Assembly: GCA_003819975.1 (NCBI GenBank)
Contig: RPPU01000169.1
Coordinates: 1-8,279 of the forward strand
From: Desulfobacteraceae bacterium
GTDB taxonomy: Bacteria; Desulfobacterota; DSM-4660; Desulfatiglandales; HGW-15
Direction of reading: 5' to 3'
Length of the DNA stretch: 8,279 nt
The notes under the pieces: generated by a model
The model's input: only the letters and a program-made list of their open reading frames with translations
Database searches by the model: none
What the model was told of the DNA's origin: nothing
Shown here: positions 1 to 8,129 of the stretch, in pieces
How the letters are laid out: every line of letters starts with the position of its first letter
How positions within the stretch are numbered: the stretch's first letter is position 1
Position numbers and translations under genes: made by a program

Positions 1-3000
1 AGGGCTATATCGCCTTGATCGCTATGGGCCGGTATGTGGAAGCGGCCCGGTTGATCCTGAAGAATAATCCGCTGCCCATGACCTGCGGCCGGGTTTGCCC
101 GCATCCCTGCGAAGCCAATTGCCGGCGCAACCGGGTGGATGCTCCGGTGAATATCAATCACCTCAAACGTTTTTGCTGCGATATTGCCTATCAAAATATC
201 GCCGATCTCGGCATCCAACCGGAACCTAGTACCGGCAAAAAAGTGGCCGTGATCGGCGGCGGGCCGGCCGGGCTTAGTGCTGCTTTTTATCTGGCCTTGC
301 GGGGGCATGAGCCCACTATATTCGAAGCCTATCCAAAATTAGGCGGCATGCTGCGTTACGGCATTCCCGAATATCGGCTGCCCAAGAAGACTCTGGATCG
401 TGAAATAGAAGCCATATTAAGCGCGGGGGTCCAGGTGCAGACCGGAAAAGTCTGGGGCCGTGATTTTACCCTGGCCGATCTGAGAGCCCAGAAGTTCGAC
501 GCTATATTTTTAGGCATCGGCGCGGCCGTCAACCGTGAACTCGAATTTGTGCCGCCCGGCACCCGGGGCATCCAATACGGCACGATCTTTTTGTCTCAAG
601 TCGGCTTGGGCGAGGATACCGGGATCGGCAAACGCGTGGCGGTGATCGGCGGCGGCAACACGGCCATGGACTGCGCGCGCACCAGTCTGCGCTTAGGCGC
701 GGAACAAGTCACGATTTTTTACCGGCGTTCGCGCCAGGAGATGCCGCCGCCAGCCATTGCAGTCGATGAAGCGGCGCTGGCGGGGGTCAAACTGGAGTTG
801 TGCGTGGCGCCGACCGGGATGGAAGGCCGCGACAACCGCCTGACCGGTCTCAAGTTCGTGCGCATGGATCTTTGCGGCGTGGACGAATCGGGTCGGGCCA
901 AGCCCATGCCGATCGCGGGTTCGGAATTCACCGTGGAACTCGATACGGTCATCATGGCCGTGGGCCAGGTCGCGGACGGACCGGTGCTGCAAAAAGATCC
1001 GGTTGCCAAGACTTTAAAATTCGGCCGCGACAGCACGGTCAGCGGCGATGCCCTGACCGGCCATACCAATCTGGAAAGTATTTTTACGGGCGGCGATTTG
1101 ATGTCGGGTCCGGCCACGGTCGTGGAAGCGATCGGCGGCGGCCGGCGGGCTGCGGAAGCGATCGACCGTTTTCTCAAGGGTCAACCCGTAGCCGCGAAAC
1201 GGCCGTTTCTGTTCAGCAAAGGGGCCAAACTCACGGAAGTGGACCAAAGCAATTTTGATGACCGTCCCAAACTGGCGCGCGCACATATGCCCATGATCGA
1301 ACCGCCGGAGCGCAAAGGCAATTTTAAGGAAGTGGAGCTGGGTTTGAGCCAAGACCAGGCCCGGGCTGAAGCATTACGCTGCCTTTCCTGCGGGTGCCAG
1401 GCCGTGGAAGACTGCCGCATCCGGAAGACCGCGCACGATATCGGCTTGCGCGAACTGGTGATCCGGCCGTCGCCGAACACACCTTTCAAGATTTTAGAAC
1501 AGCATCCCTATATAGCAGTTGAAAACGGCAAGTGCATTGTATGCCGTACGTGCGAAAGAGCTTGCGAGCAGTATCATGGCCGGAAAGCGGTCCGGGTGGA
1601 ATTGGAGCGGGTGGGTGCGCTGAATCAATACCGGCATCATCAAGTCCTCTTTAACGACCATTGCGACAACTGCGGTTTATGCACCGCGCTTTGCCCGACC
1701 GGCACTCTGAGCAATCGGGGTCCCTGGGCCAAACCGGGTCCATGGCCGTTGACCTGGGCCGAATCGGTTTGCAATTTTTGTTCGTTAGGCTGCCGCACGC
1801 GCATTGGATATTTCAGTCAAAAAGTATTGGCCGTGGACGGATTGCCGAGCTTGCCGGCCATGGGTCATCTTTGCAGCCGGGGACGTTTTGAATCCATAGC
1901 GGGCTGCGACAGTCCGGATCGCATTACCCGGCCCATGGTGCGTAAACAGGGCCAACTGGTCGAGACCGGCTGGGATGAAGCGATTCAGGCCGTGATCAAA
2001 GGCTTCAGCGATATCAAGAAGAATACCGGATCCCAGGCTTTGGCCGGCATCAGTTTGGGCCAAGGAACCCTGGAAGAACTCTATTTATTCGGCAAACTGG
2101 TCCGCAACGGATTTTCCGTGAACCAGGCGGCCGTGATGAGTCCGGCCGGAACAGAAGCCCTAAAAGATAGGGCATTGGCGGGTTTGACTCTGGCCTATAC
2201 GGAGATTGAACATCAGGATCTCGTGATCGTTGTGGGTTCCGGGCTTTCCCAAACCCTGCCGCTGCTTGAAGCGGCTTTGCACCGCATGATTCTCAAAGGC
2301 GGCAAATTGGTTCTGATCGGCCAAGACCGGAATTTGACCCCGCGCGCAGCCCTGCATCTGCAGCAAGCGCCTAATCATGCTTTGGATCTGCTTGCCGATC
2401 TTTTGCAAAACCGGAATGCGGATCCGGGGCTGAGCAATCTGTATAAAGCTGCCGATAAGGTTATGATTATTTTGAGCCATGAAGCGGATAAGAAACAAGC
2501 TCTGTCCGGATTATTTGCAGCCCAAAAGGGTGTGCAAGAGAAACAGGTCCAATTCGGGTTTATTCCGGTCGTGGCATCCGGAGCCGCCTTACGTCCGGCC
2601 GGTTTGAATCCGGAAGCCGGAACCGGCACCGCCCAAATCCTGGAAACAGCCCGGCAAGGCAAGATCAAGGGATTGTTTTTTCAAGCCGGTCATAATCCGG
2701 CCAAAGAACCTCTGGCCGAGTGGGTTGGCGCGGCTCTGCAAGCAGTCGAGTTCCTGGTCGTGACGGCGCTTTATCAAGAACCGCTTTTGAAAAAAGCCCA
2801 GGTGGTTTTACCGGCCTTGTTCTCTTTTGAAAATGAAGGCACTTTTATCGGTGTAGACGGCCAAAAATGCGCAACGGTTCCGGCGGTATTGCCTCCGCAA
2901 GGTATTCTGCCGACCTGGCAAGTGTTGGGCCGGATTCTGCAGGGTTTGACCGGGGAAGCGGGCTACAAAGACCTGCAGCAAATGCGCAAGGAAATAGGCG

Positions 3001-3005
3001 TTTAG
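1..3005 (+). CDS. GltD/NfnB-like NAD(P)H oxidoreductase fused to ferredoxin and NuoG-like modules, 5'-partial
   Basis: Probable cytoplasmic NAD(P)H-linked electron-transfer protein. The frame is open to the left edge and the first codons (from position 3) read GYIALIAMGRYVEA, a typical internal stretch of the GltD/DPYD iron-sulfur domain, so the true start lies outside the window. Residues below are counted from the TTG at position 15. Cys24/28/32/36 belong to the N-terminal Fe-S domain. FAD motif: G81-G82-G83-P-A-G86. NAD(P)H motif: GGGNTAMD at 212-219, then RRSR at 237-240. TGGD at 358-361 is the GltD C-terminal FAD contact. Cys456/459/461/467, Cys507/510/513/517 and Cys550/553/556/560 look like cluster ligands. 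C586-x2-C589-x3-C593 with C620 is the Fe4S4 motif of molybdopterin oxidoreductases. The rest (about 630-996) is a shortened NuoG/FdhA-like domain with no C-terminal dinucleotide-binding domain. Domain order recalls a fusion of the Geobacter SfrB and SfrA types; physiological partner unknown. Confidence 0.93.
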   Translation, partial: GYIALIAMGRYVEAARLILKNNPLPMTCGRVCPHPCEANCRRNRVDAPVNINHLKRFCCDIAYQNIADLGIQPEPSTGKKVAVIGGGPAGLSAAFYLALRGHEPTIFEAYPKLGGMLRYGIPEYRLPKKTLDREIEAILSAGVQVQTGKVWGRDFTLADLRAQKFDAIFLGIGAAVNRELEFVPPGTRGIQYGTIFLSQVGLGEDTGIGKRVAVIGGGNTAMDCARTSLRLGAEQVTIFYRRSRQEMPPPAIAVDEAALAGVKLELCVAPTGMEGRDNRLTGLKFVRMDLCGVDESGRAKPMPIAGSEFTVELDTVIMAVGQVADGPVLQKDPVAKTLKFGRDSTVSGDALTGHTNLESIFTGGDLMSGPATVVEAIGGGRRAAEAIDRFLKGQPVAAKRPFLFSKGAKLTEVDQSNFDDRPKLARAHMPMIEPPERKGNFKEVELGLSQDQARAEALRCLSCGCQAVEDCRIRKTAHDIGLRELVIRPSPNTPFKILEQHPYIAVENGKCIVCRTCERACEQYHGRKAVRVELERVGALNQYRHHQVLFNDHCDNCGLCTALCPTGTLSNRGPWAKPGPWPLTWAESVCNFCSLGCRTRIGYFSQKVLAVDGLPSLPAMGHLCSRGRFESIAGCDSPDRITRPMVRKQGQLVETGWDEAIQAVIKGFSDIKKNTGSQALAGISLGQGTLEELYLFGKLVRNGFSVNQAAVMSPAGTEALKDRALAGLTLAYTEIEHQDLVIVVGSGLSQTLPLLEAALHRMILKGGKLVLIGQDRNLTPRAALHLQQAPNHALDLLADLLQNRNADPGLSNLYKAADKVMIILSHEADKKQALSGLFAAQKGVQEKQVQFGFIPVVASGAALRPAGLNPEAGTGTAQILETARQGKIKGLFFQAGHNPAKEPLAEWVGAALQAVEFLVVTALYQEPLLKKAQVVLPALFSFENEGTFIGVDGQKCATVPAVLPPQGILPTWQVLGRILQGLTGEAGYKDLQQMRKEIGV

Positions 3006-3030
3006 CCGCTAAACAGCAGTCAATAGATTC

Positions 3031-3073
3031 TGTCATTTCGAACGTATGTGAGAAATCTTACATCGAGATGTAA
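3031..3073 (+). repeat. Degenerate TTTCGAAC-type interspersed palindrome ending in a 16-nt inverted repeat
   Basis: The stretch starting TGTCATTTCGAACG and continuing GTGAGAAATC resembles a short palindromic intergenic repeat (TTTCGAGCG...GAGAAATC) known from many environmental bacteria; this match is from memory. It ends in TTACATC-GA-GATGTAA (3058-3073), a perfect inverted repeat. The block fills the gap between the large oxidoreductase gene and the small membrane-protein gene and stops just before the latter's ribosome binding site. Confidence 0.45.
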
Positions 3074-3085
3074 AGGAAAATGATC

Positions 3086-3238
3086 ATGGACAGCAAACAA
3101 TGGGCCCTGAAAAAAATGGAACAGGCCAACAAAATCTTCGAGCCCAATGAAGTCAAACCCGGCATTCAACTGGCTGAGCTCATTCTTTGGACCATTGAAA
3201 TTATTCTGGTTGTCTTAATTGTTTCAAGATTTTTTTGA
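3086..3238 (+). CDS. Small one-helix membrane protein (50 aa), unknown function
   Basis: A short gene of 50 residues (MDSKQWALKKMEQANKIF...). The N-terminal half is charged and amphipathic. It is followed by one hydrophobic helix (LAELILWTIEIILVVLIVSRFF split at about residues 29-50) that runs to the C-terminus, so it is probably anchored in the cytoplasmic membrane with the N-terminus inside. AGGA at 3074-3077 lies 8 nt before the ATG at 3086 and only 2 nt before an in-frame ATG at 3080, so 3086 is preferred; the earlier start would add MI. It lies 80 nt after the oxidoreductase gene on the same strand with no obvious terminator between, so co-transcription is possible. No family recognised. 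A coding call rests on the ribosome binding site, the coherent helix and the lack of any other gene here. Confidence 0.6.
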   Translation: MDSKQWALKKMEQANKIFEPNEVKPGIQLAELILWTIEIILVVLIVSRFF

Positions 3239-3284
3239 TTCCAAATACGATTGTCGTTTAGTAAGATAATATTTCACCGCCCGT

Positions 3285-3312
3285 TTCACTCGAGGCGCAG
3301 AGATCGCAGAGA
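3285..3312 (+). repeat. CAGAG-rich 3'-flank repeat, copy 1
   Basis: Reads TTCAC-TC-GAGGCGCAGAG-ATCGCAGAGA. It aligns with the reverse complements of the copies at 3701-3730 and 6898-6925. It lies 46 nt after the stop of the 50-residue membrane-protein gene and points the same way as that gene. Similar CACAGAGGCACAGAG sequences are recalled as scattered repeats in many environmental genomes. Confidence 0.6.
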
Positions 3313-3332
3313 AGAATTATTATTTTTCTAAA

Positions 3333-3359
3333 GCCGGTTTCAAAAAATCTGAAACCGGC
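3333..3359. terminator. Strong 10-bp hairpin between convergent genes
   Basis: GCCGGTTTCA (3333-3342) and TGAAACCGGC (3350-3359) form a perfect 10-bp stem around a 7-nt A-rich loop. It sits between the end of the + strand genes (3238) and the end of the minus strand genes (3430), where terminators are expected. No good T-run follows on the + strand; on the minus strand the stem is followed by TTTAGAAAAATAAT, only a weak tract. It may end transcription from either side. Confidence 0.5.
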
Positions 3360-3700: not shown

Positions 3701-3730
3701 TCTCTGTGACCTCTGCGCCTCTGTGGTGAA
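3701..3730 (-). repeat. CAGAG-rich 3'-flank repeat, copy 2
   Basis: On the minus strand it reads TTCACCACAGAGGCGCAGAG then GTCACAGAGA. It begins 8 nt after the stop codon of the HD-domain gene and runs the same way as that gene. It is the cleanest of the three copies (others at 3285-3312 and 6898-6925). Confidence 0.65.
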
Positions 3731-4349: not shown

Positions 4350-4934
4350 TTATTCAGACGCTATTTTATTTTTCTCATCAAGCTTTTTTAGAATCGCTTT
4401 CCAAATTTCAGTCAATCCGAGATGATCAGCCCATGACGAAATATATGATCGGTCTACATCTGTTCCACTGACCTTCAAGATACCGGTTATATCCCGAAGA
4501 TGTTTTTCAGAACTGCCGGCTTTGTAATATTCCATCTTTTTAATGATCACGTCCTCAGGGGCTGCAAAATTGGCTTCGTAAGACTCTGCCGGTTGGATGC
4601 GGCGGATACGCTTGAAGCGGCTTACATCAAAAGGGGTATTTTGAAGAATGATAATATCCACTTTTAAACCGGAAAATGGATGGATGATATTAAATTGACC
4701 CTGATTCCGTATGGCCTCGCGTATCATCTCTTCGCTTATGTAATATTTTTCGGCAGGAAAAGCTTGTAGTAAATTCCAAATATGCTCTTTTTTAATTCCG
4801 GCAACGATATCAATATCATTCGTCAGGCGAGGCTCGCCATAGGCCATGGCGGCGACAGAGCCGGTTACAATATAGGGGATATGAAGCCGTTCGAATATCC
4901 CAACAACTTTTTGCAGTAATTCATAAGGTCCCAT
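4350..4934 (-). CDS. MNT/AbiEii-type nucleotidyltransferase
   Basis: A 194-residue protein with the nucleotidyltransferase fold. The signature is G25-S26 (VTGSVAAMAYG) followed by D40-I-D42 (TNDIDIV), with a third acidic residue at D93 (KVDIIIL). The stretch PEDVIIKKMEYYKAG, then EKHLRDITGIL (126-153) is typical of the C-terminal helices of the AbiEii/DUF6036-like branch. Such proteins transfer nucleotides to RNA or protein targets, and many are toxin halves of two-gene systems. The start ATG (4932-4934) lies inside the preceding small gene: the 14-bp overlap, with GGAG 8 nt ahead of the ATG, indicates translational coupling. Both genes look clearly more A+T-rich than the HD gene and the large oxidoreductase, which fits horizontal acquisition. 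Whether it is a toxin cannot be told from sequence alone; the catalytic residues look intact. Confidence 0.85.
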   Translation of the reverse strand: MGPYELLQKVVGIFERLHIPYIVTGSVAAMAYGEPRLTNDIDIVAGIKKEHIWNLLQAFPAEKYYISEEMIREAIRNQGQFNIIHPFSGLKVDIIILQNTPFDVSRFKRIRRIQPAESYEANFAAPEDVIIKKMEYYKAGSSEKHLRDITGILKVSGTDVDRSYISSWADHLGLTEIWKAILKKLDEKNKIASE

Positions 4935-5136
4935 TTAGGAATCTCCGGGTGACTTCCCGTTCGACCGCTTTTTCATCCCAGTCAGGATGCGTTTTTTGAA
5001 GATGATGGGCCAACATTTTCCGGGCGGATATCCAAATGTTAAATCCGATTTCAATTCGTTCTGCCGGGCTTTTGTGCCTGAACACTTCCGCCATGTCGTC
5101 GTCGATCACTTCAATCTGTCCCGGATCCAATCTCAT
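4921..5136 (-). CDS. Small acidic/helical protein paired with the nucleotidyltransferase
   Basis: A small cytoplasmic protein (71 aa from ATG 5136: MRLDPGQIEVIDDDMAEVF, then RHKSPAERIEIGFNIWISA...). It ends in a helical segment with HPDWDEKAVEREVTRRFLNG. I recall similar short proteins (pattern GQIEV.DD.MAEV...K.PAER) just upstream of nucleotidyltransferase genes in many bacteria, but know no proven function; a partner or antitoxin role is inference. Start choice: the frame extends to a TTG at 5175 (84 aa), right after an in-frame TAA, but that TTG has no Shine-Dalgarno and lies upstream of the expected transcription start of the predicted promoter. The ATG at 5136 has GAGG 8 nt before it, so I prefer it; the extra residues (RPEDIL) look protein-like, so 5175 stays possible. 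The 3' end overlaps the nucleotidyltransferase start by 14 bp. Confidence 0.75.
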   Translation of the reverse strand: MRLDPGQIEVIDDDMAEVFRHKSPAERIEIGFNIWISARKMLAHHLQKTHPDWDEKAVEREVTRRFLNGTL

Positions 5137-5172
5137 CAGGATATCCTCTGGCCGTTTGAACGGTAACTCATA

Positions 5173-5202
5173 CAATTATGCATTTAAAATGCAAAATTGC
5201 AA
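5173..5202 (-). promoter_or_regulatory. Promoter with overlapping 27-bp palindromic operator for the nucleotidyltransferase module
   Basis: On the minus strand TTGCAA (5202-5197) and CATAAT (5180-5175) form a sigma70-like -35/-10 pair 16 nt apart. A 27-bp palindrome (5173-5199) covers the spacer and the -10 box: arms CAATT-A-TGCATTT and AAATGCA-A-AATTG on the + strand, centred on 5186, with 12 of 13 pairs complementary. An operator here would block RNA polymerase directly, as in self-repressing two-gene modules. The promoter fits wholly in the 35-nt gap after the acetyltransferase gene. Confidence 0.5.
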
Positions 5203-6105: not shown

Positions 6106-6138
6106 AAAAGGATGAAGGCTGAAGGATCAAGGATGAAA
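6106..6138 (+). repeat. Heptamer-based 33-bp repeat, copy 1
   Basis: AAAA followed by the heptamers GGATGAA, GGCTGAA, GGATCAA, GGATGAA and a final A. It differs at one base from the copies at 7674-7706 and 8094-8126. It forms the left arm of an inverted pair with 6454-6486 around the four-helix-bundle remnant, and lies directly upstream of the acetyltransferase gene. Confidence 0.8.
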
Positions 6139-6155
6139 AATCGGTTAGGAAAAGA

Positions 6156-6195
6156 GAATATCGAATATCGAACTCCGAATATCGAATGATGAAGG
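6156..6195 (+). repeat. GAATATCGAA tandem/near-tandem repeat tract
   Basis: GAATATCGAA, overlapping ATATCGAA, then CTCC, GAATATCGAA and TGATGAAGG. The core unit occurs three times in about 35 bp. Similar AATATCGAATATCGAA tracts are recalled from other repeat-rich environmental genomes. No gene is seen in it on either strand. Confidence 0.6.
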
Positions 6196-6219
6196 TGAGA
6201 AACGAGAAACCAGGGTCAA

Positions 6220-6303
6220 TTTTGGAATGCGGCGACGCGTCGCCGCTTTAAAAGCGCGGACCAGGGCAGGAGCCCTCGTGTGACGCGTCCGTGCACTCCA
6301 AAA
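6220..6303. repeat. 84-bp GC-rich hairpin element with inverted ends
   Basis: The ends are near-perfect inverted repeats: TTTTGGAATGC (6220-6230) and GCACTCCAAAA (6293-6303), 10 of 11 bases complementary. Inside are an 18-bp perfect palindrome (6229-6246, half-site GCGGCGACG), GCTTT-A-AAAGC (6245-6255) and AGGGC-AGGA-GCCCT (6263-6276). A 7-bp direct repeat GTCAATT lies at each side (6215-6221 and 6307-6313), though not symmetrically spaced. The layout is like a REP/MITE-type non-autonomous element. It carries no open frame. Confidence 0.55.
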
Positions 6304-6365
6304 GGTGTCAATTGAGTTGAATCATCATTTTTAAAAAGTGACAACTTTAAATCAGGACTTGACCT

Positions 6366-6434
6366 TCAGCGAGCCTTTATTCTTTTAACACAGGTAACCA
6401 GAATGGCCATTGGTCCATCAGTCTTTTCAGTAAG
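6366..6434 (-). pseudogene. C-terminal remnant of a four-helix-bundle (23S rRNA IVP-type) gene
   Basis: In one frame this encodes LTEKTDGPMAILVTCVKRIKAR and a stop, against LTAEADELTAILVTCVKRVKVRRS in the intact gene at 7711-8076. At DNA level 6370-6434 and 7721-7785 match at 47 of 65 positions without gaps. No start codon or the other about 100 residues are present: upstream comes straight to the heptamer repeat at 6454-6486. It is thus an internally deleted, dead copy of the same kind of gene in the same orientation. Confidence 0.8.
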
Positions 6435-6447
6435 ATCCGATTTTGTT

Positions 6448-6855
6448 TTAATTTTTCATCCTTCCGTCTTCATCCTTTATCTTTTTCTTTAAGGTCGGAA
6501 CTATGAAAAGAACACCGATAACCAAACATAAAATAAAAAAGAATTGAGATTCGGAAGTCCGAATGTTGCCGAAAATCAACTCCGCTGCGGAACGGAAAAG
6601 ATAAAGGCCGGCATTTGCCCATAGCAGAGCGCGGCCTATGCGGGTGGTCAGAATTTCTTCGCGTAAGGCAAACAAAGAGTAGGTGAAAAAGATAAAAATC
6701 GGAATCATGCAGAAATTAAAGGTCTGCATGAGCATGCGGTGTTCGGCGGTCATATAAGCCAGGCCGGCGGGCCAGTCCAGTATCCACCAGAAGGCTATAT
6801 GAAACAGGGTTAATAGGGCGCTGATGATTCCGCAAATGATGATCAATGATTTCAT
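6448..6855 (-). CDS. Four-helix integral membrane protein, unknown function
   Basis: A 135-residue protein with four hydrophobic segments, at about residues 3-25, 45-63, 75-93 and 103-121. The first loop carries WILDWPAGLAYMTAEHR and the second REEILTTRIGR, which I recall as recurring features of an uncharacterised family of small four-helix membrane proteins; no function is known to me. It should sit in the cytoplasmic membrane. AAGGA lies about 10 nt before the ATG at 6855, a rather long spacing. The last twelve residues (KKIKDEDGRMKN) and the stop region are encoded by a copy of the 33-bp heptamer repeat (6454-6486), so the natural end of the protein has probably been replaced or extended by repeat sequence. 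It starts 77 nt after the isochorismatase-like gene. Confidence 0.75.
   Translation of the reverse strand: MKSLIIICGIISALLTLFHIAFWWILDWPAGLAYMTAEHRMLMQTFNFCMIPIFIFFTYSLFALREEILTTRIGRALLWANAGLYLFRSAAELIFGNIRTSESQFFFILCLVIGVLFIVPTLKKKIKDEDGRMKN
6454..6486 (-). repeat. Heptamer-based 33-bp repeat, copy 2 (diverged), inside a coding end
   Basis: On the minus strand: AAAA, then AGATAAA, GGATGAA, GACGGAA, GGATGAA and A. It matches 26 of 33 positions of the perfect copies at 7674 and 8094. It is inverted relative to 6106-6138, and the two enclose the four-helix-bundle remnant. It also encodes the C-terminus of the membrane protein that stops at 6448. Confidence 0.65.
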
Positions 6856-7673: not shown

Positions 7674-7706
7674 AAAAGGATGAAGGCTGAAGGATAAAGG
7701 ATGAAA
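7674..7706 (+). repeat. Heptamer-based 33-bp repeat, copy 3 (left arm)
   Basis: AAAA, then GGATGAA, GGCTGAA, GGATAAA, GGATGAA and A. It is identical at 33 of 33 bases to the reverse complement of 8094-8126. It ends 4 nt beyond the stop codon of the four-helix-bundle gene. Confidence 0.85.
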
Positions 7707-7710
7707 AAAA

Positions 7711-8076
7711 TCAAGATCGTCGAACCTTTACTCTCTTAACACAGGTGACAAGGATAGCCGTAAGTTCATCGGCTTCCGCGGTAAGGCTTGAGGTATTATT
7801 GGGACTTATTATACCGGATTCTGTGGCCAATTCAAGCCAATACCGAGTTTCCTCCAATTCCTGCAAAGCGCCTTCCAGTTTGCTGATAACTTCTGCATTG
7901 GAGCGGCTTCGAATGCTTTCGCAATAATGAGCGCCCACGGATGTCCCGGATCTAAGCATCTGTTTACCGATAACTTGAGCTTCTGTACTTTTCGGTAATT
8001 TTGAGTAAAAACGAACGATCTCCAGCGCGAACCTTTTTGTTCTTGTTCTCAAATCCTCCGGCTTTTCTTTATTCAT
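7711..8076 (-). CDS. Four-helix-bundle protein, 23S rRNA intervening-sequence (IVP) family
   Basis: A 121-residue, all-helical protein of the family first described from open frames in intervening sequences of 23S rRNA (TIGR02436-type) and related in fold to the Avd accessory protein of diversity-generating retroelements. Family features are clear: FALEIVRFYSKLP near the start, VIGKQMLRSGTSVGAHYCES (35-54), RSRSNAEVISKLEGALQELE, then ETRYWLEL (78-84), and ADELTAILVTCVKRVK at the end. Length is normal. Biochemical role is unknown; fold relatives form pentameric barrels that bind nucleic acid. There is no rRNA nearby, so this is a free-standing copy. GAGG lies 5-6 nt before the ATG at 8076. The gene is tightly enclosed by perfect inverted 33-bp repeats, and a deleted relative lies at 6366-6434. 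It starts 53 nt after the edge gene, nearly all of that being repeat. Confidence 0.9.
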   Translation of the reverse strand: MNKEKPEDLRTRTKRFALEIVRFYSKLPKSTEAQVIGKQMLRSGTSVGAHYCESIRSRSNAEVISKLEGALQELEETRYWLELATESGIISPNNTSSLTAEADELTAILVTCVKRVKVRRS

Positions 8077-8093
8077 CTTTTCCTCTTTTCTTC

Positions 8094-8126
8094 TTTCATC
8101 CTTTATCCTTCAGCCTTCATCCTTTT
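8094..8126 (-). repeat. Heptamer-based 33-bp repeat, copy 4 (right arm)
   Basis: The perfect inverted partner of 7674-7706. It sits 3 nt after the stop of the edge gene and 17 nt before the start of the four-helix-bundle gene, so nearly the whole intergenic gap is repeat. Confidence 0.85.
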
Positions 8127-8129
8127 CTT

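What the first reader, a model, noticed from the sequence alone, without database searches (positions are those of the whole stretch)
7674..8126. Four-helix-bundle gene enclosed by perfect 33-bp inverted repeats
The two arms (7674-7706 and 8094-8126) are identical over all 33 bases and leave only 4 and 17 nt beside the gene. A free-standing IVP-type gene with terminal inverted repeats looks like a minimal cassette. IVP genes are known to invade 23S rRNA genes by an unknown route, and the Avd relatives work in retroelements, so repeat-delimited stand-alone copies could show how the family spreads. No transposase is present. The mobility idea is inference; the repeats are directly seen.
Basis: partly seen in the sequence, partly recalled or inferred. 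Interest (0 to 1): 0.72.

Follow-up and report, generated by a model that had tools for sequence, protein, structure and literature searches.

The report
Transposase-free mobile cassette with heptad ends
A tiny stretch of bacterial DNA, one small gene between two mirror-image runs of a seven-letter repeat, turns out to be one of a widespread class of mobile DNA in which no known moving enzyme was found, and it may explain how a related gene long known inside ribosomal RNA genes has spread.

Summary
The 33-bp perfect inverted repeat is real and brackets a PF05635/TIGR02436 (IVP) gene. Its arms are degenerate tandem heptads (AAGGATG-type); a second, decayed copy lies at 6106-6489. It is not local: 144 of 201 IVP genes tested (window included) have inverted arms, against 7 of 455 control ORFs and 5.8% of swapped flanks; 18 of 19 in a later Chloroflexota set. 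Best arm period is 7 nt in 111 of 143 arms. The cassette moves as a unit: in Nitrospira, homology between copies at different sites ends at the arms, the pyrB-pyrC site is empty in 22 of 29 loci, and 169-185-nt gene-less derivatives have terminal inverted repeats and an 8-bp target duplication. No transposase was found with these ends. Best reading: ~0.4-kb TIR elements organised like RAYT-REP, IVP being the probable end-recognition factor; the enzyme is unknown and may be an unlinked transposase. Against: no duplication in gene-carrying cassettes as a set; outside the window's clade the repeat unit follows the protein only above about 60-70% identity.

The parts
7674..7706 (+). left arm (3' side of the gene), 33 nt, degenerate heptads AAGGATG AAGGCTG AAGGATA AAGGATG
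7711..8076 (-). four-helix-bundle (IVP, S23-type) gene, 121 aa
   Evidence: PDB relative 2rld
8094..8126 (-). right arm (5' side of the gene), exact reverse complement of 7674-7706
7674..8126 (-). whole cassette; its RNA folds with a closing stem of about 36 pairs, -151.8 kcal/mol, z -7.2
6106..6140 (+). left arm of a second, decayed copy (97% identical to 7674-7708)
   Evidence: D1
6370..6434 (-). remnant of the C-terminal end of a second IVP gene (72% identical to 7721-7785); reading frame broken
   Evidence: (D3)
6446..6489 (-). right arm of the decayed copy (77% identical to 8086-8129)
   Evidence: D6, I3, I4

Best explanation
The feature is one copy of a widespread class of small mobile elements (about 0.4 kb): a lone IVP four-helix-bundle gene between terminal inverted repeats that are mostly built of degenerate 7-nt tandem repeats. 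SHOWN: the architecture is general among the IVP genes sampled; the two arms of one cassette share their unit while cassettes of one genome differ; the cassette is the unit that occupies different sites; and it gives rise to gene-less derivatives, some with an 8-bp target duplication. INFERRED: the IVP oligomer recognises the repeats of its own cassette (on DNA or on the RNA stem), pairs the two ends and so directs movement of cassette and derivatives. UNKNOWN: which enzyme cuts and joins the DNA. In transcripts the arms form a long double strand that RNase III-type processing could cut out, which would let the element be tolerated between operon genes and, in the same design, inside 23S rRNA (inference from the published IVS work).
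For: Inverted arms: 144 of 201 IVP genes (window included) vs 7 of 455 control ORFs vs 5.8% of swapped partners; 1 of 36 controls with ORF-free flanks; 18 of 19 in a later Chloroflexota set (one of them the G004 copy already counted). Period: best lag 7 in 111 of 143 arms and in 42 of 56 non-redundant arms. Different units within one genome: cross-arm similarity 0.30-0.39 for 204 same-genome pairs below 50% protein identity. Unit and protein: in the window's clade 0.74-0.75 at 50-70% identity across genomes; outside it 0.96 at 70-80% (10 pairs) and 1.02 above 80% (39 pairs). Movement: copies about 81-86% identical whose homology ends at the arms, at five sites counted by eye; pyrB-pyrC filled, gene-less, degraded or empty; two G004/G016 presence-absence sites. 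Derivatives: 8-mer flank identity 0.60 vs 0.28 null, 7 of 16 copies at 7/8 or better, null 0.4%; a nested 405-nt element with 8/8. IVP under purifying selection, dN/dS 0.05-0.25 in the 45 lowest-dS pairs. AAGGATG hairpins in 4 of 201 Chloroflexota genomes, 3 of which are among the 12 with an IVP at least 50% identical to the window's (P 6e-4); at 55%, the cut I had first in mind, 2 of 4 (P 2e-3).
Against: No target duplication in gene-carrying cassettes taken together (0 of 143 with an 8-mer, 1.0 expected), none in 29 G004 heptad hairpins, and of 17 elements paired only 2 reach 7/8, 5 reach 6/8 and 10 fewer, the 63-bp forms among these. Outside the window's clade the unit is not shared at 50-60% protein identity (mean 0.38, 0 of 44 pairs at 0.7 or more) and only partly at 60-70% (0.62, 4 of 10), and 8 same-genome pairs at 50-70% give 0.26 and 0.43; the closest pairs include same-site orthologues. 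Covariation is also what simple co-inheritance gives. IVP has no recognised catalytic domain. Gene-less copies occur in genomes without a detected intact cognate IVP (G034, G037; G038 has no TIGR02436 match), though assemblies may be incomplete. 57 of 201 IVP genes fell below the bracket threshold.
Confidence: 0.55

Rival explanations
1. Pure MITE-like passenger: the arms are ends recognised by an unlinked DDE-type transposase; the IVP gene is cargo or a regulator and plays no part in movement.
For: A target duplication of fixed length, 8 bp, is typical of cut-and-paste transposases (general knowledge). Derivatives without the gene moved; one with an exact duplication (L327) lies in G034, where no intact cognate IVP was seen.
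Against: No element with the same ends and a transposase was found: of 35 end sites in four genomes the completed pairs delimit elements under 450 bp, and 12 ORFs of 180 aa or more round three single-ended sites held no transposase; one site at a contig start was not examined. IS66, which came to mind by recall, gave no match in G013 and G034. One genome holds many different units, each round its own IVP gene. The gene is under purifying selection.
Confidence: 0.32
2. The arms are not transposon ends but signals: heptad arrays grown by slippage that give translation starts and stops in all frames and a processed RNA stem; IVP binds them to regulate itself. Spread is by ordinary recombination between arrays.
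For: The AAGGATG unit holds an SD-like AAGGA and overlapping ATGA, and 7 nt shifts the frame each unit (sequence). Upstream arms have stops in 1.93 frames on average against 1.54 shuffled. Some cassettes sit between operon genes. Stem of about 36 pairs, z -7.2. No duplication in gene-carrying cassettes.
Against: In the non-redundant set the stop signal almost vanishes (1.64 vs 1.49), so it belongs mainly to the AAGGATG clade. Slippage does not give inverted copies of one unit on both sides, nor target duplications.
Confidence: 0.11
3. Chance or assembly artefact.
For: None found.
Against: Control tests; complete and isolate genomes among the loci; chance of the window's repeat negligible.
Confidence: 0.01

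Closest known systems
23S rRNA intervening sequence (IVS) with S23/IVP ORF, as described for Coxiella, Leptospira, Salmonella (PMC4990558; abstract and passages seen)
   Same: About 430 nt, S23-type ORF, terminal inverted repeats forming a 28-bp stem of similar stability (-143 kcal/mol there, -151.8 here), ORF-less versions, mobility hypothesised but unresolved.
   Different: Here the element lies between protein genes, its ends are heptad arrays, and sites with, without and with a deleted element plus a target duplication in derivatives are shown.
RAYT-REP/BIME systems (recalled)
   Same: Gene bracketed by an inverted repeat, gene-less hairpin copies dispersed in the genome; a RAYT gene (NF047646) was picked out of the controls by the same test.
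   Different: RAYT is a Y1 transposase; IVP is a four-helix bundle with no known catalysis; ends are mostly 7-nt tandem repeats.
MITEs
   Same: Short, terminal inverted repeats, target duplication in some copies, no transposase, several copies.
   Different: The parent form carries a gene under purifying selection, and no transposase parent was found.
Diversity-generating retroelement Avd (related to PF05635; PMC10053308, passages seen)
   Same: Fold relative; partner protein of a mobile system.
   Different: No reverse transcriptase among the 8 window ORFs scanned.
Intergenic heptamer repeats, e.g. TAACTGA in Beggiatoaceae and cyanobacteria (PMC4679880, abstract and passages seen); cyanobacterial STRR (search listing only)
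   Same: 7-nt tandem repeats, often before start codons, scattered over distant lineages.
   Different: There almost always direct repeats and no IVP link in the passages seen; here inverted pairs around IVP genes.

Membership tests
PF05635 / TIGR02436 protein family | profile match above curated cut-off | tested here: met
   76.8 bits (cut-off 33.8) and 91.8 bits (cut-off 24)
23S rRNA intervening sequence | located inside an rRNA gene | tested here: not met
   No Rfam match in the window; neighbours are protein genes
23S rRNA intervening sequence | complementary ends closing a long stem round an S23-type ORF | tested here: met
23S rRNA intervening sequence | excision by RNase III | not testable with these tools
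   needs RNA work
Insertion sequence | own transposase | tested here: not met
   None among 8 window ORFs; none with the same ends in Nitrospira
Insertion sequence / MITE | target site duplication | tested here: inconclusive
   Met for part of the Nitrospira derivatives, 8 bp (7 of 16; 2 of 17); not seen for the window's copy or for 143 gene-carrying cassettes
MITE | short, terminal inverted repeats, no transposase, several copies | tested here: met
RAYT-REP | REP-associated Y1 tyrosine transposase | tested here: not met
Diversity-generating retroelement | reverse transcriptase with template and variable repeats | tested here: not met
   no RT among 8 window ORFs; TR/VR repeats not searched for as such
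Integron cassette | attC site recognised by an integrase | not tested
   not examined

The most novel reading that the evidence does not exclude
IVP proteins are the end-binding (perhaps catalytic) subunits of a new class of transposition system whose ends are tandem short repeats of a period set by the protein family: 7 nt for IVP, about 9-10 nt for the unrelated GxxExxY (PD-(D/E)XK) genes, which are bracketed in the same way. Much of the short hairpin and heptad-repeat content of environmental bacterial genomes would then be their derivatives, and 23S rRNA intervening sequences a special case.
Probability: 0.3. Interest if true: 0.92.

Novelty: new variant of a known kind. Interest (0 to 1): 0.8.

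Why it matters
How IVP genes reach 23S rRNA genes has been an open question for decades (hypotheses from 1990 and 1993 quoted in PMC4990558, passages seen). Stand-alone copies with defined ends, empty sites, deletion derivatives and a target duplication make it directly testable. It would give a common identity to thousands of 'four helix bundle protein' genes (6021 proteins matched) and to many unexplained intergenic hairpins, and would point to a movement system in which the only encoded protein is a four-helix bundle.

Tried and rejected
Source genome: none is held for the window, so copies in its own genome could be judged only within 8.3 kb; the GNAT neighbour's best named relatives are Spirochaetes MAGs at 56%, too weak to name the organism.

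IS66 as trans-acting enzyme (suggested by recalled GTAA ends and 8-bp duplications): no match in G013 and G034, one each in G026 and G037. Target duplications for gene-carrying cassettes and G004 hairpins: none. Frame-independent stop/start function as a class property: weak once redundancy is removed. A second G004/G016 hairpin site (site B) did not align well and is not used. The upstream neighbour of the DUF4391 gene in L006 looked like a helicase end by recall but matched no family. Literature: nine searches listed no paper that, by title, abstract start or the passages I looked at, links IVP genes to heptad or terminal repeats outside rRNA; the library holds only CC-licensed PMC papers and no preprints, and I read no paper in full. 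PMC10910872 (one passage) only lists IVP in a figure legend; PMC5896051 (passages) did not bear on IVP.

For this I lowered the best explanation from 0.6 to 0.55 and the novel case from 0.35 to 0.3. One search displayed 15 of 29 pyrB-pyrC loci; one search gives all 29. The 50% cut in the hairpin test was set after seeing the list; 55% is given beside it.

Rows dropped: 5 of 206 IVP genes for short flanks; hits under about 80 residues; 4 of 20 derivatives without both ends located; 3 of 30 GxxExxY loci; 1 of 20 Chloroflexota loci, pairs with high divergence. The 201 IVP genes are not independent (orthologues among them), and the control ORFs include overlapping ones. The 20 derivatives were chosen from the listing by their match to the 3' end of the cassette. 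L313 counts as 2 of 8 although by eye an exact 8-mer appears at a shifted boundary.

Full report
Observation. The inverted repeat is exactly as described: 33 of 33 bases, 4 and 17 nt from a 121-aa minus-strand gene. The gene is a PF05635/TIGR02436 four-helix-bundle (IVP, S23-type) gene with a solved relative, 2rld. Two things were missed. The arm is a tandem array of degenerate heptads (AAGGATG AAGGCTG AAGGATA AAGGATG; lag-7 self-match 19 of 26). And a second, decayed copy lies 1.5 kb away at 6106-6489: left arm 97% identical, a 65-nt C-terminal gene remnant at 72%, a right arm at 77% (alignment).

Is it general? A genome scan with an IVP alignment gave 80 loci (the best 80 of 245) from Planctomycetota, Chloroflexi, Acidobacteria, Cyanobacteria, Deltaproteobacteria, Nitrospirae, Verrucomicrobia, WOR-3 and others. 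Their flanks carry purine-rich heptads upstream and the reverse complement downstream; lag-7 self-match is 0.46 and 0.44 against 0.26 in 1417 stretches further away. Adding copies from 15 whole genomes, the genus Nitrospira (28 of 32 genomes positive) and fetched regions gave 206 distinct IVP genes, the window's included, 201 with at least 100 nt on both sides. An inverted repeat of score 13 or more within 180 nt was found for 144 of 201, for 7 of 455 control ORFs of the same loci, and for 5.8% of flanks with swapped partners. By source: 64 of 80 genes in the loci, 41 of 71 further Nitrospira copies, 39 of 50 others (window included); of 36 controls with ORF-free flanks 1 passed. Cassettes with visible ends such as L223, L203 and L210 fell below the threshold, so the rate is probably a lower bound. 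A later set from Chloroflexota, again found by similarity to the window's protein, gave 18 of 19.

What are the arms? In the 144 bracketed cassettes lag 7 matches 0.61 of positions and lag 14 0.57; the other lags from 2 to 15 lie between 0.21 and 0.35. Lag 7 is best in 111 of 143 arms, lag 8 in 16. With proteins thinned to below 60% identity, 7 is best in 42 of 56. One Anaerolineales genome (G004) shows the key pattern: arrays of many different heptads (AAGGATG, GGAGTAG, GTAGACG, ATTTACG, GTGGTGC, CAGTAGT, AGTGTCA, GAATGGC and more), with IVP genes bracketed by arms that share a unit within a cassette and differ between cassettes. Same-genome pairs below 50% protein identity have a cross-arm similarity of 0.30-0.39. 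Between genomes it is 0.33-0.37 below 50% identity. Above that the picture splits: in the window's clade (63 of 144 arms, many phyla) it is 0.74-0.75 at 50-70%; outside it, 0.38 at 50-60% (44 pairs), 0.62 at 60-70% (10 pairs), 0.96 at 70-80% (10 pairs), 1.02 above 80% (39 pairs). So both arms of a cassette change together, the unit of the window's clade has travelled across phyla with its gene, and in other clades the unit changes faster than the protein. This fits recognition of the ends by the cassette's own protein, but co-inheritance of gene and ends would give the same, and the closest pairs include same-site orthologues.

Does it move? (a) In Nitrospira one subfamily (ten loci, mostly 81-86% DNA identity between sites) sits at five sites counted by eye, and homology between sites ends at the arms, with termini CTCAGG...CCTGAG; the same holds for L031/L068 in cyanobacteria and for two cassettes in a cas operon of L058 (cas4 and cas2). 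(b) One of these sites is the pyrB-pyrC junction (families confirmed). Of 29 loci, 2 carry the cassette with the gene (G018, G047), 1 is cut by a contig end inside it (G039), 2 have a gene-less version with arms (G026, where an internal deletion lies at a short direct repeat, and G023), 1 a degraded hairpin (G031), 1 has 43 unrelated nt (G013) and 22 are empty. (c) In G004 against its relative G016, an IVP cassette and an 82-nt hairpin are absent from the orthologous sites; at the cassette's site G016 has a different gene-less hairpin. (d) Twenty dispersed copies in Nitrospira keep about the last 110 nt of the IVP gene; most show the ends GTAACTACTCAGGTAGATAGGCTGAAGG and an inverted partner. 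In 16 with both ends located, 169-185 nt long, the flanking 8-mers agree at 0.60 against 0.28 for mismatched pairs; at 6, 7, 9 and 10 nt the values are 0.30, 0.31, 0.26 and 0.23 against 0.25-0.28. Seven of 16 agree in at least 7 of 8 positions (null 0.4%), four exactly. This is a transposition signature. Among 17 further paired elements, one nested 405-nt element has an exact duplication, a 155-nt one 7 of 8, five 6 of 8 and ten fewer; the 63-bp minimal hairpins have none.

What moves it? Of 35 end sites in four genomes, the pairs completed delimit elements shorter than 450 bp, the longest with IVP sequence inside. Three sites had a single end (L334, L338, L348); their 12 ORFs of 180 aa or more match no transposase. 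One site at a contig start (G013:C249) was not examined. IS66 gave no match in two of the genomes. IVP is under purifying selection (dN/dS 0.05-0.25 among the 45 lowest-dS pairs; the median over all 316 pairs with dS below 1.5 is 0.61, which I put down to saturation). Against a necessary role of IVP: gene-less copies occur in G034, G037 and G038 without a detected intact cognate gene. Against uniform transposition with duplication: 143 gene-carrying cassettes as a set show no 8-mer duplication and neither do 29 G004 hairpins. Gene-less AAGGATG hairpins (perfect pattern) occur in 4 of 201 Chloroflexota genomes; 3 of these are among the 12 genomes with an IVP at least 50% identical to the window's (P 6e-4), or 2 among the 4 at 55% (P 2e-3). 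The other 9 genomes with such an IVP have no such hairpin.

Wider class. The control set's best inverted repeat belonged to a GxxExxY gene (PD-(D/E)XK) and the next to a REP-associated tyrosine transposase, the known precedent. A separate test gave brackets for 17 of 27 GxxExxY genes (30 loci, 3 dropped: two without the motif, one with a short flank) against 4% for swapped flanks, with an arm period of 9-10 nt (0.44 and 0.41) instead of 7 (0.27). So at least two unrelated orphan gene families have brackets, with different periods.

Comparison with the known. IVS elements of 23S rRNA have the same size, ORF and closing stem and have been suspected of mobility for decades (passages of PMC4990558). 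The window cassette's RNA folds with a closing stem of about 36 pairs at -151.8 kcal/mol, z -7.2. It is not an IVS by position and not an insertion sequence by content. It is organised like RAYT-REP but with a different protein. The searches listed under Tried and rejected showed no paper connecting stand-alone IVP genes with heptad ends. IVP genes inside 23S rRNA were not examined here.

Verdict. The repeat-bracketed IVP cassette is real, general among the genes sampled and, in Nitrospira at least, mobile; that the IVP protein directs the movement is the most likely but unproven step, and the enzyme that does the chemistry is unknown.

Noticed in passing
window 3292-3312 and 3701-3721: Inverted CAGAG-type repeats (GAGGCGCAGAGATCGCAGAGA, 90% complementary) bracket 388 nt with a small membrane-protein-like ORF (by eye); the unit resembles arms found round GxxExxY genes.
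   Followed up: partly
window 6156-6188 and about 6217-6314: Inside the decayed copy: a heptad run GAATATC, and a separate palindromic insert (CAATTTTGGAATGC ... GCACTCCAAAA), seen by eye.
   Followed up: no
window 4350-5175, - strand: Two overlapping genes, one matching an Rv0078B-related antitoxin family, the other unassigned; looks like a toxin-antitoxin-type pair.
   Followed up: no
L005 4232-4633; L373-L402: GxxExxY (TIGR04256) genes bracketed by inverted tandem repeats of period 9-10; 17 of 27 tested.
   Followed up: partly
L006, L024, L013, L019, L051: IVP cassettes sit directly before a DUF4391-like gene (PF14335 confirmed for L006 only); the downstream arm reads in frame as an extra N-terminus of that protein.
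   Followed up: partly
L058 about 2355-2603 and 2989-3351: Two IVP cassettes inserted in a cas operon, before cas2 and before cas4.
   Followed up: yes
G004 (L111-L150): An Anaerolineales genome with a heavy load of heptad hairpins of many different units (regions chosen round arrays and IVP genes).
   Followed up: partly
G006:C1:2409445-2432303 (L232, L233): Cluster of six IVP genes within 23 kb of a planctomycete chromosome.
   Followed up: no
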